Both the position numbers and the translations under genes were made by a program. The notes under the pieces are model-generated. The model was not told the origin of the DNA. It made no database searches and saw only the letters and a program-made list of their open reading frames with translations. A stretch of 64,000 nucleotides of DNA from Flavobacteriaceae bacterium (GTDB lineage: Bacteria > Bacteroidota > Bacteroidia > Flavobacteriales > Flavobacteriaceae): NCBI GenBank assembly GCA_017857815.1, contig JAFMCL010000006.1:1-64000 (forward strand), read 5' to 3'. This document shows positions 43,345 to 49,504 of the stretch, one piece after another (position 1 is the stretch's first letter; each line of letters starts with the position of its first letter).

Positions 43345-44181
43345 ATGGATAAGAAAGAAGAAGGAATAGATAAGCAACAGTTGAGTTGGTTCATGCGAAT
43401 CATCACGCTTGGAGATCGATTTTCAATTCAGGACTTTTACGATAGAATCAAAAAAGGATTTGTTGAATTTTTGATTGTATTTTTTGGTGTATTGGTTTCT
43501 TTTGGTGTAGAAAGTCAGGGAGAAGACTTTGGAGATCGGGAGTCAAACATTGACAATTTGGTCGGTTTAAGGGATGAAATGAGAGATATCCAAGCCTATA
43601 CTCAAGATTATATATTAGAAAACCAATGGATTAAAGTGCTCTACAAAGCGCTTTATGATCAGTGGGAGGATAACAATGAGAATGTTTTTATTTTTCTAGA
43701 TCAAGAAGATGAAGAGCCATACTCTCCATTGTCTTTTTACACTAATTATAATCCTTTTAATCCTCCTCGTGTCGTTTATGAGTCGATTAAATTGGATGGA
43801 ACATTCCGATTCTTAGGTTCAGAAGTAGGAAGGTTTGTCAACGACACCTATGACGGAACCGACTTAAAGTATTTAATCTTGAACACCGACAGGGAAGAAA
43901 AAGTTTATGTAGAACAATTTGAAGCACGAGTTGCAAATAAATGGATTTACGAATTAGAGGAGGTTGATCTTTATGAAGTAGAGTTCTGGATTAAAAACAG
44001 AAAATATATACAAGATGACAGGTTTTTAAAATACAACTTGTTTAAAAGATTGGGACTCTGGGATCAAATTTCAGAACAGCTTACTAAATATGACCAAACG
44101 TTGGAAAAGAACATAAAAAAACTAGATTCCGTGATTAAAGTGAAGGAAGAACAGTTTACATTTATCTATTGGTGGTGGTAG
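43345..44181 (+). CDS. Single-helix membrane protein of unknown function (DUF6090-like)
   Basis: This 278-aa protein has a basic N-terminus, one transmembrane helix at about residues 39-55 (FLIVFFGVLVSFGVE) and a soluble acidic, partly helical domain from 56 onward with many aromatic residues. The layout resembles the Bacteroidetes DUF6090 proteins, which place one helix before an extracytoplasmic helical region; the match is by eye only. The last residues are FTFIYWWW, with three consecutive tryptophans, and this coding end overlaps the convergent crtI gene by 20 nt. Confidence 0.6.
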   Translation: MDKKEEGIDKQQLSWFMRIITLGDRFSIQDFYDRIKKGFVEFLIVFFGVLVSFGVESQGEDFGDRESNIDNLVGLRDEMRDIQAYTQDYILENQWIKVLYKALYDQWEDNNENVFIFLDQEDEEPYSPLSFYTNYNPFNPPRVVYESIKLDGTFRFLGSEVGRFVNDTYDGTDLKYLILNTDREEKVYVEQFEARVANKWIYELEEVDLYEVEFWIKNRKYIQDDRFLKYNLFKRLGLWDQISEQLTKYDQTLEKNIKKLDSVIKVKEEQFTFIYWWW

Positions 44182-45634
44182 TCTTCTCTATTAAGCCCGC
44201 AACTAATTTACCAGAGATTAATGCCGGAGGTACTCCTGGGCCTGGAACGGTAAGCTGACCCGAGAAAAATAAATTTTCAACTTTTTTACTTTTAAGTTTT
44301 GGTCTTAAAAAAGCGGTTTGTAATAACGTATTTGCCATTCCATAGGCATTCCCCTTGTAGGAATTATATTCAGATTTAAAATTATTAACACAAAAGGATT
44401 TTCTAAATAAAATATTTTTTCTTAAGCTTTGACCAGTGAGTTCTTCCAAGCGTTTAAATACGATCTCGAAATACGTCTCTCTTAAGGCCTCTGTGTCTTC
44501 TAATCCTGGAGCAATGGGAACCAATAAAAAACAACCTTCTTTTCCTTCTGGTGCCATTGAAGCATCACTTTTCGAAGGGAAATTAGCATAAAACAAAGGC
44601 TCTTCTGGCCATTTTGGGTCATCATAAATACTTTCGGCATGTACATCAAAATCGACATCAAAAAACAAGGTGTGATGGGATACGTTTTTAACCTTTTTAT
44701 CCAAACCAATAAAGAACAGTAATGAAGATGGAGCAAACACCTTCTTAGACCAATAAGCCTCGCTGTAAGCCCTGTATTCGGGTTCGAGAAGTGTTTCGGT
44801 GTGGTGATAGTCGGCGCCACTTAAAACCACATCAGATAAGATTTCTTTCCCTTTAATTTTTACACCAAAAGCTTTCTTGTTTTTAACCAAAATAGAATCA
44901 ATAGGACTGTTGAGCTCAATCTTAACTCCAAGACTTTCGGCAAGTGCAACCATTCCCTTCACAATACTGTACATCCCTTCTTTTGGGTGCCAGGTACCTA
45001 ATCCAAAATCTGCATAATTCATAAAATTATAAAAGGCAGGAGTGTTGGACGGTTTTGCTCCTAGAAACAAAACAGGAAATTGAAGTATTTGTGCCAGTTT
45101 GGGGTTTTTAAACTCCTTAACGACTTCTCGTTTTACGGTAGTAAAAAAGTACCCTAATTTTTTAATGGTATCAGGAGTCACTAGCTCTAGTGGTGATATT
45201 CCGGGACGATAAACCAACTCGTCAATTGCGATTTTATAATTATGAGCAGCTTTCCCAATAAACCGTTTTAACTTCTTAGCACTTCCAGTTTCAACCTTTT
45301 CAAATTCTGCATATATTTTTTCTAAGGAATCTCCAATCAACATAGAATCATCTTTACCAAAATAGACTTGGTAGCCGGGATCAAGACGTTCCAACTGGTA
45401 ATAATCACTTGGCTTTTTCCCAAAGTCAGCAAAAAACTTTTCAAAGACATCTGGCATCCAATACCACGAGGGACCAATGTCGAAAACAAAACCGTCTTGG
45501 TGCATTTGTCTTGCGCGTCCCCCAGGACTACTGTTTTTTTCGAAGATTGTAACTTGATTTCCAGCTTGTGCGAGATAACAAGCTGCAGAAAGGGAGGAAA
45601 ACCCTGATCCAATGATGGTGATTTTTCTTTTCAT
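44162..45634 (-). CDS. crtI: Phytoene desaturase
   Basis: CrtI is a FAD-dependent desaturase that converts phytoene to lycopene. The 490-aa protein has the N-terminal dinucleotide-binding motif GSGFSSLSAACYLAQAG (residues 9-25) with the acidic strand end EKNSSPGGRA, the DIGPSWYWMPD substrate-site region (about 52-62) and the C-terminal carotenoid motif (SGQLTVPGPGVPPALISG, about 461-478). The crtB, crtE and crtY genes are not in the window. The crtD/cruF genes lie 3 kb away, so this gene provides the backbone they act on. A TATCTTTG element ends 8 nt before the ATG. Confidence 0.93.
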   Translation of the reverse strand: MKRKITIIGSGFSSLSAACYLAQAGNQVTIFEKNSSPGGRARQMHQDGFVFDIGPSWYWMPDVFEKFFADFGKKPSDYYQLERLDPGYQVYFGKDDSMLIGDSLEKIYAEFEKVETGSAKKLKRFIGKAAHNYKIAIDELVYRPGISPLELVTPDTIKKLGYFFTTVKREVVKEFKNPKLAQILQFPVLFLGAKPSNTPAFYNFMNYADFGLGTWHPKEGMYSIVKGMVALAESLGVKIELNSPIDSILVKNKKAFGVKIKGKEILSDVVLSGADYHHTETLLEPEYRAYSEAYWSKKVFAPSSLLFFIGLDKKVKNVSHHTLFFDVDFDVHAESIYDDPKWPEEPLFYANFPSKSDASMAPEGKEGCFLLVPIAPGLEDTEALRETYFEIVFKRLEELTGQSLRKNILFRKSFCVNNFKSEYNSYKGNAYGMANTLLQTAFLRPKLKSKKVENLFFSGQLTVPGPGVPPALISGKLVAGLIEKTTTTNR

Positions 45635-45642
45635 GAACCTAG

Positions 45643-45650
45643 CAAAGATA
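45643..45650 (-). promoter_or_regulatory. TAnnTTTG -7 element for crtI
   Basis: TATCTTTG on the minus strand ends 8 nt before the crtI ATG, so the leader would be very short or absent. Confidence 0.45.
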
Positions 45651-45681
45651 TCTCTATTTTAAATGGTAATCAAACAATCAA

Positions 45682-46407
45682 TTACTTCTTATCGGGCTTA
45701 ATTGAGGATGGTTTTTTTTCTCGCACCAATCGAATTTCTTCAACAAAGGATGCGCTAATAATTCCTGTTGGGATCGCCACGATTCCGATTCCAATTAAAG
45801 AAATTAGAGAAGCAAACATTTTACCACCAACTGTGATGGGATAGACATCGCCATAGCCAACGGTTGCCAAGGAGACAGTTGCCCACCAAATTGATTCTGA
45901 GATACTTGAGAACTTTTCTGGTTGAGCATCATTTTCTAAGTAGTAAATCGCGGAGGCAGAAAACAAGATCATTAAAGTAGAAAGAAAAAGGGTAAACCTT
46001 AGCTCGTTTCTTACCGAAAACAACGCTTTGGTAAATAGCTTTAATGAGGAGCTGTCCCTTCCTAATTTGAAAATTCGTGTCAAACGGAAAAGCCTTAATA
46101 TTCTAAGAAAACGTCCATCTACTTTTATAAACGTGTTTAAGTAAAATGGCAAAATTGAAATCAAATCAATTATTCCAAAAACACTAAAAACATATTTAGA
46201 GACTCCTTTCAGTTTATCATCTTTAAAAGCAATGAATACCCTGTAGAGGTATTCAAAAGAGAAAATAAAAATCGAAGTGGCTTCAAAAATGCTAAATGCA
46301 TTTCCATAAGTCAAACGAAGGTTTTCATGCGATTCCATAATCATCGCAACGATGTTTAGGATAATCAACACATAGATAAACTTATCAAATAAAATCGGAG
46401 ACTTCAC
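45682..46407 (-). CDS. Voltage-gated-type potassium channel
   Basis: This 241-aa ion transporter has six helices. S4 carries the voltage-sensor arginine repeat (GRFLRILRLFRLTRIFKLGR, residues 98-117). The pore loop has the K+-selective filter TVGYGD at 182-187, and S6 follows at about 198-215. The cytoplasmic C-terminus is short and basic and has no RCK or cyclic-nucleotide domain. It is similar in size to prokaryotic Kv channels. A 28-aa single-helix peptide gene ends 5 nt upstream and shares its promoter. Confidence 0.92.
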   Translation of the reverse strand: MKSPILFDKFIYVLIILNIVAMIMESHENLRLTYGNAFSIFEATSIFIFSFEYLYRVFIAFKDDKLKGVSKYVFSVFGIIDLISILPFYLNTFIKVDGRFLRILRLFRLTRIFKLGRDSSSLKLFTKALFSVRNELRFTLFLSTLMILFSASAIYYLENDAQPEKFSSISESIWWATVSLATVGYGDVYPITVGGKMFASLISLIGIGIVAIPTGIISASFVEEIRLVREKKPSSIKPDKK

Positions 46408-46412
46408 CTGAT

Positions 46413-46499
46413 TTAATCTTTAGACATATCAATGAAAATCACCAATAGGACAATTACGGTAGTTATTATGACTACGACTGCTACAGAAAATATGGACAT
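46413..46499 (-). CDS. Small single-helix membrane peptide upstream of the K+ channel
   Basis: This ATG-started frame of 28 codons encodes MSIFSVAVVVII... ending in VLLVIFIDMSKD. Almost the whole peptide is one hydrophobic helix (about residues 3-23), followed by a short charged tail, as in small regulatory membrane proteins. It lies 5 nt ahead of the channel gene, so it must be on the same transcript. An exact TATCTTTG -7 element is 19 nt upstream of its ATG, the usual distance here, which supports it as the first gene. No homology search has been run, and the hydrophobic run could arise by chance in AT-rich DNA. Confidence 0.55.
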   Translation of the reverse strand: MSIFSVAVVVIITTVIVLLVIFIDMSKD

Positions 46500-46518
46500 A
46501 AATAAAATAGTTATATCT

Positions 46519-46526
46519 CAAAGATA
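46519..46526 (-). promoter_or_regulatory. TAnnTTTG -7 element for the small peptide-K+ channel transcript
   Basis: TATCTTTG on the minus strand lies 19 nt before the ATG of the 28-aa peptide. No clear TTTG -33 box was seen. Confidence 0.45.
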
Positions 46527-46690
46527 TGGAATTTTGATTATTTCAGATTGTACAGCAAGCTTATTTATGTCATATCGAGATATATTTTAAAGTAAATAAT
46601 TTTTAATAGGTTTTTTAAAACAACATCAATTTATTTAATTCATATTCTTCTTTTCTTTTTACCTTAGTTTTAATTCTAAAACTATAGCAT

Positions 46691-47389
46691 ATGGACAGCT
46701 TTACCACTGTCACTTTTTTTAAATTTAATTCACATAAATTTTGGGCTTTTAAGCAAATGGGACTGATGCCGATGCATTTGTCAAAAGCCAATGGTCTTAA
46801 GTTCTTCAAGCTAATGGGAACTGGTGGAGGCAACGGTTTTAGTCTTTGGCCAGACTTTGGTACTTATGCTTTATTGGGGGTATGGAATTCTGAAAAAGAA
46901 GCAAATGATTTTTATTCAAAAAGTACGGTGATTAAAAAATACATGAAAAAGGCAAACGTTTTCAGGACAATAAAACTTAAACCGATTCACAGTCATGGAC
47001 TTTGGAGTGGTCAAAATCCTTTTCAATTAAGGAAGGAAACAAAACCAAATATTAATCCCACCGCTCCCGTAGCAGTAATTACTCGCGCAACTTTGAAATG
47101 GAACCGCTTGTTACCATTTTGGAAAGCAGTACCCGCTGCGAGTGATGCCATAGAAAATGCAAAAGGGGTGTCCTTTTTTAAGGGAATTGGCGAATGGCCT
47201 TTTGTTCAGCAAGCGACTTTGAGTCTTTGGGAAAACATGGAAGCGGTTAAGACCTTTGCTTATAAAGGGAAAGCACATGCAGAGATTATAAAAAAAACAA
47301 AATCTCAAGGCTGGTATAGCGAAGATCTTTTTGCAAGATTTCACTTAATCTCAGATACAGGATTTAAAAAAATAGAGGATATTCAATGA
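46691..47389 (+). CDS. CrtA-like carotenoid hydroxylase/monooxygenase
   Basis: This 232-aa protein belongs to the spheroidene monooxygenase (CrtA) family, recognised by the FWAFKQMGLMP opening (residues 18-28), GTGGGNGFSLWPDFGTYALLGVW (about 43-65) and the FFKGIGEWPFVQQATLSLW region (about 160-178). A CrtA-related enzyme from a myxol-producing Flavobacterium has been described as a carotenoid 2-hydroxylase, which fits this cluster better than ketolation. It overlaps crtD by 4 nt (ATGA), so translation is coupled. No transmembrane helix is visible; haem binding has been proposed for the family. Confidence 0.82.
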   Translation: MDSFTTVTFFKFNSHKFWAFKQMGLMPMHLSKANGLKFFKLMGTGGGNGFSLWPDFGTYALLGVWNSEKEANDFYSKSTVIKKYMKKANVFRTIKLKPIHSHGLWSGQNPFQLRKETKPNINPTAPVAVITRATLKWNRLLPFWKAVPAASDAIENAKGVSFFKGIGEWPFVQQATLSLWENMEAVKTFAYKGKAHAEIIKKTKSQGWYSEDLFARFHLISDTGFKKIEDIQ

Positions 47390-48867
47390 AGACAGCGGTT
47401 GTGATCGGTGCAGGAATTGCTGGAATTGCCGCCAGTATAAGAATGGCAAAAAAAGGATATCAAGTTGCTGTTTACGAAGCAAATGATTATCCCGGAGGAA
47501 AGCTCAGTGCATTTACGTTGGGAAAGTATCGATTTGACGCTGGCCCATCCTTGTTTACGATGCCCGACTTTGTAACCGAACTCTTTGAGCTGTCTGAAGA
47601 AGACCATCGGGAATATTTTAATTTTAAAAAGAAAGAAATTGCATGTAAGTATTTTTGGGAGGATCAGACTCAAATCACCGCTTATGACGATCAAGAGCTT
47701 TTTTTTAAAGAAATTCAGGAAAAATTAAACATTGACACCAAACCATTAAAAAAATATTTAAGGCGAGCCAAAAAGAAATTTGATTTAACAGCGCCACTTT
47801 TTCTGGAAAAATCACTACATCAGTTTAAGACTTTTTTAAACTTAAACACCCTAAAGGCCTTGTCTAGTTTAAGCCTTTATGAAATCAATCAAACTTTGCA
47901 TGGCGTCAATTCAAAGCAATTGAAAGAGCCACATTTGATTCAGATGTATGATCGCTATGCTACTTATAATGGCTCTAGTCCATTTAAAACTCCTGGAATA
48001 ATGACCCTTGTTCAACACCTCGAACAGGAATTTGGAACTTTTATTCCTGAAGGTGGAATGGAACAAATCTCGCACTCGCTTTATGAACTGGCAAAACGAC
48101 AGGGAGTCAAATTCCACTTCAGCGAACAAGTGGAGGAAATCATTACGGATCAGGGAAGAGCAACTGGGGTTGTTGTGAATAATGTTAAGATCAATTACGA
48201 TGTCACTATTTCCAACATGGATGTTCATCCAACCTACCGAAAATTGCTTAAAAACAAGCCAGCCCCCGAGCGTGTTCTGTCACAAGAGCGATCAAGTTCG
48301 GCGGTTATTTTTTATTGGGGAATTAAGCATTCTTTTCCAAATTTGGATTTACACAATATCTTCTTTGCCAATGATTATAAAAATGAATTTGATTTTATTT
48401 TTAATAAAAATAAGCTAGCGGACGATTTTACGATTTACGTTAATATTTCCTCAAAAGATGTTCCAAAAGATGCGCCTGATGGTTGCGAAAACTGGTTTGT
48501 GATGATCAATACCCCGTCCGACAAAGGCCAGGATTGGGATGCAATCACCACCGAATTAAGAAAAAGAGTTATTCATAAATTGAATAAAATATTAAAAACT
48601 GATTTGGAAAAATTTATTGAGGTGGAACAGGAATTGACACCGCCTATGATAGAAGAAAAAACAGCTTCCTATGGAGGGGCACTGTACGGAAGTTCAAGTA
48701 ATAATAAAATGGCAGCCTTTTTAAGGCATCCTAATTTCACTTCCAAAATCAAAAATTTATATTTTTGTGGAGGCAGTGTTCATCCAGGTGGAGGAATTCC
48801 ACTTTGTTTATTGTCCGCAAAAATCACAACCGATTTAATCCCTAAAGGAACTGATGATACCGACTAA
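47386..48867 (+). CDS. crtD: Hydroxyneurosporene/1-hydroxycarotenoid desaturase (CrtD)
   Basis: This 493-aa FAD enzyme of the CrtI family has VVIGAGIAGIAASIRMAKKG at 5-24, YEANDYPGGK at about 30-39 and the C-terminal FCGGSVHPGGGIPLCLLS (about 464-481). In 1'-hydroxylated carotenoids CrtD introduces the 3',4' double bond. Phytoene desaturation is done by the separate CrtI, and the adjacent CruF supplies the 1'-hydroxyl group, so the CrtD role is favoured over a second CrtI. It overlaps crtA-like by 4 nt and cruF by 14 nt. Confidence 0.85.
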   Translation: MKTAVVIGAGIAGIAASIRMAKKGYQVAVYEANDYPGGKLSAFTLGKYRFDAGPSLFTMPDFVTELFELSEEDHREYFNFKKKEIACKYFWEDQTQITAYDDQELFFKEIQEKLNIDTKPLKKYLRRAKKKFDLTAPLFLEKSLHQFKTFLNLNTLKALSSLSLYEINQTLHGVNSKQLKEPHLIQMYDRYATYNGSSPFKTPGIMTLVQHLEQEFGTFIPEGGMEQISHSLYELAKRQGVKFHFSEQVEEIITDQGRATGVVVNNVKINYDVTISNMDVHPTYRKLLKNKPAPERVLSQERSSSAVIFYWGIKHSFPNLDLHNIFFANDYKNEFDFIFNKNKLADDFTIYVNISSKDVPKDAPDGCENWFVMINTPSDKGQDWDAITTELRKRVIHKLNKILKTDLEKFIEVEQELTPPMIEEKTASYGGALYGSSSNNKMAAFLRHPNFTSKIKNLYFCGGSVHPGGGIPLCLLSAKITTDLIPKGTDDTD

Positions 48868-49504
48868 ATTAACTAAGGAAAATCTCTCCATTGCAACTAT
48901 TTGGTTATTTCATGTCAGTGGAATTCTTGGAATGCTCTATGGGAATTCTGACTGGTTCATCTCCGCAACTCCATTAAACCTTTTGATAAGTTTTTTTTTA
49001 TTACTTCTTAATTCGAAAGGACACAAATGGTTTTTTCCAATGGTATTTATCGCTTTCTTGGTCGGTATGATTTCTGAAATCTTAGGGGTTCAATTTGGAT
49101 GGATTTTTGGGAATTATCAATATGGAGAACAATTGGGTATTAAGTTGCTGGGAGTTCCATTGATGATTGGAGTCAATTGGGCAATGCTTACAATCATAAC
49201 AGGGGCAATAGCCCACCAGTTTTACGAAAACACATTCATGCGAATTATTACAGGAGTTGGTCTCATGCTTCTTTTAGATCTTTTGATAGAACCAGTAGCA
49301 CCACGCCTCGATTTTTGGGTTTTTGAGGGAGGAGAAGCACCATTGCAAAACTATGTTGGTTGGGGAGCAGTAGCATTGTGCCTCCAATTTGGATATCAAT
49401 TTCTGAAAATTAAGGTAGAAAGTGGATTTCCATATCACTTATATTTACTTCAGATCATATTTTTTACTGTATTATTAATCAAACAAACCACCATAGGATT
49501 GTAA
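48854..49504 (+). CDS. cruF: Carotenoid 1',2'-hydratase (CruF)
   Basis: This 216-aa membrane protein has about seven hydrophobic helices and the CruF/DUF422 features: LGVQFGWIFGNYQYGEQLG (about residues 76-94) and LLIEPVAPRLDFWVF (about 137-151). CruF adds water across the 1',2' double bond of the acyclic carotenoid end, the first step toward saproxanthin and myxol. It begins inside the last codons of crtD and closes the carotenoid operon. Confidence 0.87.
   Translation: MIPTKLTKENLSIATIWLFHVSGILGMLYGNSDWFISATPLNLLISFFLLLLNSKGHKWFFPMVFIAFLVGMISEILGVQFGWIFGNYQYGEQLGIKLLGVPLMIGVNWAMLTIITGAIAHQFYENTFMRIITGVGLMLLLDLLIEPVAPRLDFWVFEGGEAPLQNYVGWGAVALCLQFGYQFLKIKVESGFPYHLYLLQIIFFTVLLIKQTTIGL

What the first reader, a model, noticed from the sequence alone, without database searches (positions are those of the whole stretch)
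46413..46526. 28-aa single-helix peptide encoded in front of a potassium channel
A short ATG frame of 28 codons is almost entirely one hydrophobic helix with a charged tail. It ends 5 nt before the K+ channel gene and is preceded, 19 nt upstream of its ATG, by an exact TATCTTTG -7 element. This is what an accessory subunit of a channel would look like. Small hydrophobic peptides that modulate transporters and channels are known in bacteria, but I do not know one for this channel family.
Basis: partly seen in the sequence, partly recalled or inferred. Interest (0 to 1): 0.55.

Follow-up and report, generated by a model that had tools for sequence, protein, structure and literature searches.

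The report
Conserved membrane micropeptide beside carotenoid genes
A 28-residue membrane peptide encoded just before a potassium-channel gene is a real gene kept by natural selection in many marine flavobacteria, but it also survives where the channel is gone, so it probably serves the neighbouring pigment-making enzymes or another membrane partner rather than the channel alone.

Summary
A 28-codon ATG frame (46499-46413, minus strand) ends 5 nt before a Kv-like channel gene, with an exact TATCTTTG 19 nt before its ATG. It is a real gene: the frame precedes the orthologous channel in 21 of 21 same-genus loci and in 45 of 47 named loci (one of the other two is cut by its contig end). It is under purifying selection (pooled pN/pS 0.25). 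Its most conserved core residues lie on one helical face (permutation P = 0.0006), as for a helix that packs on a partner. 'Accessory subunit of the channel' is only partly supported. The usual order is peptide-channel-crtI in a carotenoid cluster. In three lineages the channel has decayed, vanished or moved, and the peptide stays intact upstream of crtI with few amino-acid changes. In three others it is missing beside the channel, and a peptide-like ORF stands elsewhere in the genome. So it is probably a trans-acting small membrane protein with at least one partner besides the channel; CrtI is my first candidate, untested. Three paper searches found no description.

The parts
46519..46526 (-). 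TATCTTTG, -7 promoter element (Bacteroidetes TAHHTTTG type)
   Evidence: conserved in the alignment; 32 of 45 loci exact within 60 nt, 2.7 expected; consensus from passages of PMC6847099
46413..46499 (-). 28-aa single-helix peptide gene
45682..46407 (-). Kv-like six-helix ion channel (GTG start, TVGYGD filter), second gene of the row
   Evidence: Pfam PF00520 E=1.6e-33, PF07885; best solved relatives by sequence are Kv channels
44162..45634 (-). crtI: bifunctional phytoene desaturase/3,4-desaturase (CrtID), third gene of the row
   Evidence: NCBIfam NF058655, 726 bits against a cut-off of 640
46691..47389 (+). Divergent crtA-like gene (spheroidene monooxygenase-like)
   Evidence: NF045923 E=2.4e-59, 200 bits, below its curated cut-off of 300
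47386..48867 (+). crtD: 1-hydroxycarotenoid 3,4-desaturase
   Evidence: NF042421, 700 bits, above its cut-off of 500
48854..49504 (+). cruF-like carotenoid biosynthesis protein
   Evidence: PF04240 E=2e-27; TIGR03460 below its cut-off

Best explanation
A genuine small inner-membrane protein and the first gene of a peptide-channel-crtI row in a carotenoid cluster. Shown: the frame, start codon and amino acids are under purifying selection, and its most conserved core positions form one face of a helix. Inferred: it spans the membrane once, with the lysine-bearing C-terminus in the cytoplasm (positive-inside rule), and that face packs on a larger membrane partner. The partner is not only the channel, because the peptide stays intact where the channel is dead, not found or moved, and in those cases it sits upstream of crtI. 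I think the likeliest partner is the membrane-associated CrtI desaturase or its assembly (about 0.35), then another membrane protein of the same cells (about 0.3), then the channel, alone or as a second partner (about 0.25). The tight spacing to the next gene suggests translational coupling. The confidence below is for the general statement; the rivals overlap with it.
For: Present in 21 of 21 same-genus loci, 22 of 22 genus genomes and 45 of 47 named loci. pN/pS 0.25 pooled; median dN/dS 0.11 over the 113 pairs with computable dS. Helical conservation moment peaks at 100 degrees, P=0.0006. Kept upstream of crtI without an intact adjacent channel: G004, with a decayed channel remnant between; G230 and G400, overlapping crtI by 8 nt, best channel matches only 36% and 43% identical; G439 and G440, channel elsewhere. 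There 12 synonymous to 3 nonsynonymous differences (G230/G400, P=2.8e-6) and 12 to 4 (G439/G440, P=4.2e-5). On a quick crtI tree G004 and G439/G440 are nested among peptide-channel-crtI rows.
Against: No direct evidence for CrtI. All 13 genomes tested have crtI, but I measured no background frequency. The peptide lies much closer to the channel than the channel does to crtI. In G440 a second, divergent peptide copy (GTG start) precedes the moved channel, which points to a channel link. In G367, G180 and G369 the peptide is absent beside channel-crtI, and G228 has a channel with no peptide found in its assembly. Losses rest partly on incomplete metagenome assemblies.
Confidence: 0.5

Rival explanations
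1. Dedicated accessory subunit of the Kv-like channel: the helix packs against the channel and tunes gating or assembly.
For: Stop -14 to +7 nt from the assigned channel start in 45 of 45 loci, with many non-ATG channel starts (25 TTG, 3 GTG, 17 ATG), as expected for coupled translation. Strong co-occurrence with the channel ortholog (19/3/2/373, Fisher P=2.5e-27); two of the three channel-only genomes (G180, G332) have a weaker peptide-like ORF elsewhere. G440 keeps a copy at the moved channel that retains V6, V10, V17, I21, D24.
Against: Peptide kept in three lineages without an intact adjacent channel, in two of them with no channel ortholog found in the genome. The co-occurrence may be a single gain in one clade. 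None of 7 loci with channels at 46-55% identity has a profile match just upstream.
Confidence: 0.25
2. Cis-acting leader: the short frame only feeds ribosomes to the next gene (termination-reinitiation), and the peptide product does nothing.
For: First frame after the promoter element and tight spacing to the channel in 45 of 45 loci, and to crtI in G230/G400.
Against: Amino-acid selection, one conserved helix face, and peptide-like ORFs standing elsewhere in genomes whose channel locus lacks it. In G439, G440 and G004 the gap to crtI is 40, 86 and about 400 nt.
Confidence: 0.08
3. Free-standing small membrane protein with an unrelated partner (for example respiratory complex, rhodopsin or lipid) that merely sits in this operon.
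For: Stand-alone peptide-like ORFs in G367, G369, G124, G332 and G180. Rhodopsin in 26 of 28 genomes with the peptide or the channel, against 72 of 309 family genomes, a draw that includes some of the same genomes.
Against: Stable position in the crt cluster over many genera; the rhodopsin link is confounded by kinship and habitat.
Confidence: 0.3
4. Hydrophobic toxin of a type I toxin-antitoxin pair.
For: Size and hydrophobicity only.
Against: First gene of a conserved metabolic row with one conserved helix face. I ran no search for an antisense RNA.
Confidence: 0.02

Closest known systems
KdpF (small subunit of the KdpFABC K+ pump)
   Same: About 29-aa single helix in a potassium-transport operon (recalled)
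   Different: Its partner is a P-type ATPase complex, not a Kv-like channel (recalled); no PDB or Pfam relative found for this peptide
DltX (small membrane protein of dltXABCD)
   Same: Small membrane protein encoded with, and essential for, the D-alanylation enzymes (passage of PMC10903887)
   Different: Other pathway; no relation shown by any search here
CydX of cytochrome bd oxidase
   Same: Small hydrophobic helix with few conserved residues, co-encoded with its complex (passages of PMC4325964)
   Different: CydX tracks one CydA type and has a conserved Trp at the start of its helix; this peptide outlives its immediate neighbour and has no conserved Trp
KCNE subunits of eukaryotic Kv channels
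   Same: Single-helix proteins acting on Kv-type channels (recalled); the channel here is Kv-like
   Different: Longer and eukaryotic (recalled); no sequence relation shown

Membership tests
Small single-helix membrane proteins (general kind: CydX, KdpF, AcrZ, DltX) | Under about 50 aa, frame conserved by selection | tested here: met
   27-34 aa in 45 loci; pN/pS 0.25. Translation itself not tested
Small single-helix membrane proteins (general kind: CydX, KdpF, AcrZ, DltX) | One transmembrane helix | tested here: inconclusive
   Hydrophobic core by sequence and 100-degree conservation periodicity; no topology test or structure model
KdpF | Encoded with kdpABC (recalled) and related in sequence | tested here: not met
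   Neighbours are the channel and crt genes; best Pfam match of any of 41 members E=0.039, to an unrelated family
CydX | Encoded in a cydAB operon, conserved Trp at the helix start | tested here: not met
   Neighbours and alignment A4
Channel accessory subunit | Retained only with the channel | tested here: not met
   Kept intact in G004, G230 and G400, where no intact channel ortholog was found; assemblies 86-95% complete
Channel accessory subunit | Binds the channel or changes its current | not testable with these tools
   Needs co-purification or electrophysiology
Partner of CrtI | Binds CrtI or changes its product | not testable with these tools
   Only position and retention upstream of crtI

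The most novel reading that the evidence does not exclude
The peptide is a shared membrane subunit that tethers or tunes both a Kv-like channel and the CrtI carotenoid desaturase in rhodopsin-bearing marine flavobacteria, linking membrane-potential control to pigment synthesis. It would be, as far as I know (recalled, not searched exhaustively), the first small-protein subunit for either family in bacteria.
Probability: 0.12. Interest if true: 0.8.

Novelty: new member of a known kind. Interest (0 to 1): 0.5.

Why it matters
Short genes like this are easily missed by annotation, and their partners are often guessed from the next gene. Here natural losses of the next gene give a direct test, and they say that guess is incomplete. 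The family comes with a candidate binding face, a named list of carriers and a cultured carrier ('Arcticimaribacter forsetii AHE01FL', passages of PMC9122927), so the partner can be found by experiment. The stable presence of a Kv-like channel inside a carotenoid cluster of mostly rhodopsin-bearing bacteria is itself unexplained.

Tried and rejected
Rejected: chance ORF (selection); pure leader (amino-acid selection, stand-alone ORFs); membership in a known Pfam or PDB family (best E=0.039 among 41 members, no family matching more than two; best E=3.8). Led nowhere: the order-wide search (346 genomes, own hit and one chance-level hit inside a 590-aa frame). Paper searches for the combination returned no paper (the library holds only open-licence PMC papers); listings served for context.

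Circularity. Profile A1 holds same-genus sequences only; with it 17 of 397 family genomes match at E up to 1e-3. A3 adds the sequences found by A1, and with it 21 of 397 match, so the A3 E-values of its own members are flattered.

Weak point: the stand-alone ORFs. With A3, built without them, they score 1.7e-8 (G367), 9.7e-5 (G124), 2.5e-4 (G369) and 0.025 (G180). The better values come from A5, which contains the first three; G332 and G180 were not in it (1.4e-4, 0.0019), but the G332 ORF is the same gene at the same place as in G124. Several lack two N-terminal residues and differ at V10 or V17, so they may be paralogs rather than moved orthologs. G228 has the channel away from the crt genes and no peptide match at E up to 5.

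Full report
What is there. On the minus strand, window 46499-46413 is an ATG frame of 28 codons with a stop, 5 nt before the GTG of a six-helix channel gene (46407-45682) and 19 nt after an exact TATCTTTG (46526-46519). The channel matches Pfam Ion_trans at 1.6e-33, and its best solved relatives by sequence are Kv channels. The next gene on that strand is crtI (CrtID, above its NCBIfam cut-off). Divergently lie a crtA-like gene (below cut-off), crtD (above cut-off) and a cruF-like gene. The channel therefore sits in a carotenoid cluster.

It is a real gene. A search of 60 relatives gave 21 close channel orthologs in the genus, own genome included, and 21 of 21 have a 28-aa ATG frame in the same place. 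Profile A1, built from 17 of them, matches in 22 of 22 same-genus genomes. Among 47 named channel loci, 45 have it. One (L125) is cut by its contig end and one (L103, Ca. A. forsetii) lacks it there. One of the 45 (L100) uses GTG. These named loci partly repeat the genomes. In the 19 of 22 same-genus sequences used, pooled pN/pS is 0.25 and the median dN/dS is 0.11 over the 113 pairs with computable dS. TAHHTTTG occurs within 60 nt upstream in 32 of 45 loci, against 2.7 expected from single-base shuffles; the consensus is from passages of PMC6847099.

It looks like an interacting helix. In alignment A4 reduced to 39 rows, the six most conserved core positions are V6, V10, T13, V17, I21 and D24. 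Conservation has a sharp moment at 100 degrees per residue (P = 0.0006 by permutation of residues 6-25; 0.0033 for residues 6-22). Such a face suggests packing on a partner rather than a generic anchor. Related rows are not independent, so the P values are indicative.

Usual order. In 43 of 47 named loci a crtI-matching frame follows the channel; two contigs end before it (L093, L095) and in two (L100, L103) the channel lies away from the crt genes. The peptide stop lies -14 to +7 nt from the channel start in 45 of 45 loci, and 28 of those 45 starts are TTG or GTG; the starts were assigned by a simple nearest-start rule. This suggests coupled translation.

The channel can go and the peptide stays. 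(1) G004, same genus: the peptide is intact, the channel is a short frameshifted remnant and crtI has an open frame; its only channel match in the genome is 35% identical. (2) G230 and G400 (genus g206): the peptide overlaps crtI by 8 nt with no channel between. Their best channel matches are 36% and 43% identical; the latter lies elsewhere with no peptide match in its locus. (3) G439 (Ca. A. forsetii) and G440 (the same contigs as G142): the channel is away from the crt cluster and the peptide stays upstream of crtI. Differences are 12 synonymous to 3 nonsynonymous for G230/G400, 12 to 4 for G439/G440, and 14-17 to 4-5.3 for G004 against three relatives. The relatives of G004 still have the channel, so that comparison does not date the decay. 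On a quick crtI tree of 51 rows, G004 and G439/G440 are nested among peptide-channel-crtI rows; the place of G230/G400 is weakly supported.

Results that cut the other way. G440 carries a second, divergent copy directly before its moved channel. Across 397 family genomes the peptide (E up to 1e-3) and the channel ortholog (67% identity or more) occur together in 19, channel only in 3 (G228, G180, G332), peptide only in 2 (G230, G400), neither in 373 (Fisher P = 2.5e-27). This could be one shared gain. In 7 loci with channels at 46-55% identity there is no profile match just upstream; two of these have some other hydrophobic short frame nearby, unlike the peptide.

The peptide can leave too. 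In G367, G180 and G369 channel and crtI are present with no peptide match beside them. In G332 the channel has none either, and no crtI follows within the 1.5 kb seen. In G124, same genus as G332, the contig ends inside the channel gene, so the upstream side is unseen. Each of these five genomes has a peptide-like ORF of similar length elsewhere; G332 and G124 share the place. G228 has a channel and no match. G366, G166 and G354, with channels at 52-55% identity, gave no match at E up to 5. The order-wide search found only the own copy and one chance-level hit among 346 genomes. This argues for a product acting in trans, with the caution that the stand-alone ORFs may be paralogs.

Reading. A small membrane protein whose partner is not the channel alone. 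I favour CrtI because the peptide sits upstream of crtI in the cases where the channel was lost or moved, but this may be mere position: crtI is present in 13 of 13 genomes tested and no background was measured. Rhodopsin is present in 26 of 28 genomes with the peptide or the channel, against 72 of 309 family genomes (overlapping sets), a correlation confounded by kinship and habitat. Passages of PMC9122927 describe the NS5 marine group, which includes the cultured Arcticimaribacter forsetii, as proteorhodopsin-bearing. I do not know whether the window's genus belongs to NS5.

Novelty. Paper searches for this combination returned nothing. A global catalog of small proteins exists (PMC11364881, seen in a listing only) and may contain the sequence. 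Small single-helix proteins with partners are a known kind (passages of PMC4325964 and PMC10903887). This is, to my knowledge, an undescribed member with an unusual neighbourhood.

Noticed in passing
window 45682-46407 (-) within 44162-49504: A Kv-like channel is a stable member of a carotenoid cluster across many marine Flavobacteriaceae loci; 26 of 28 genomes with the peptide or the channel have a rhodopsin. Possibly it trades membrane potential for pH gradient; untested idea.
   Followed up: partly
L143, L144, L145, L164: In G367, G180 and G124 an unknown 241-263-aa gene lies between channel and crtI, and in G332 a 264-aa one follows the channel; these genomes have no peptide seen beside the channel (G124 upstream side unseen).
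   Followed up: no
window 43345-44181 (+): A 278-aa gene with no NCBIfam or Pfam match is conserved beside crtI in many of the loci.
   Followed up: no
L100 and L103 (G440, G439): The channel lies outside the crt cluster, in different neighbourhoods, in two Arcticimaribacter-like genomes.
   Followed up: partly
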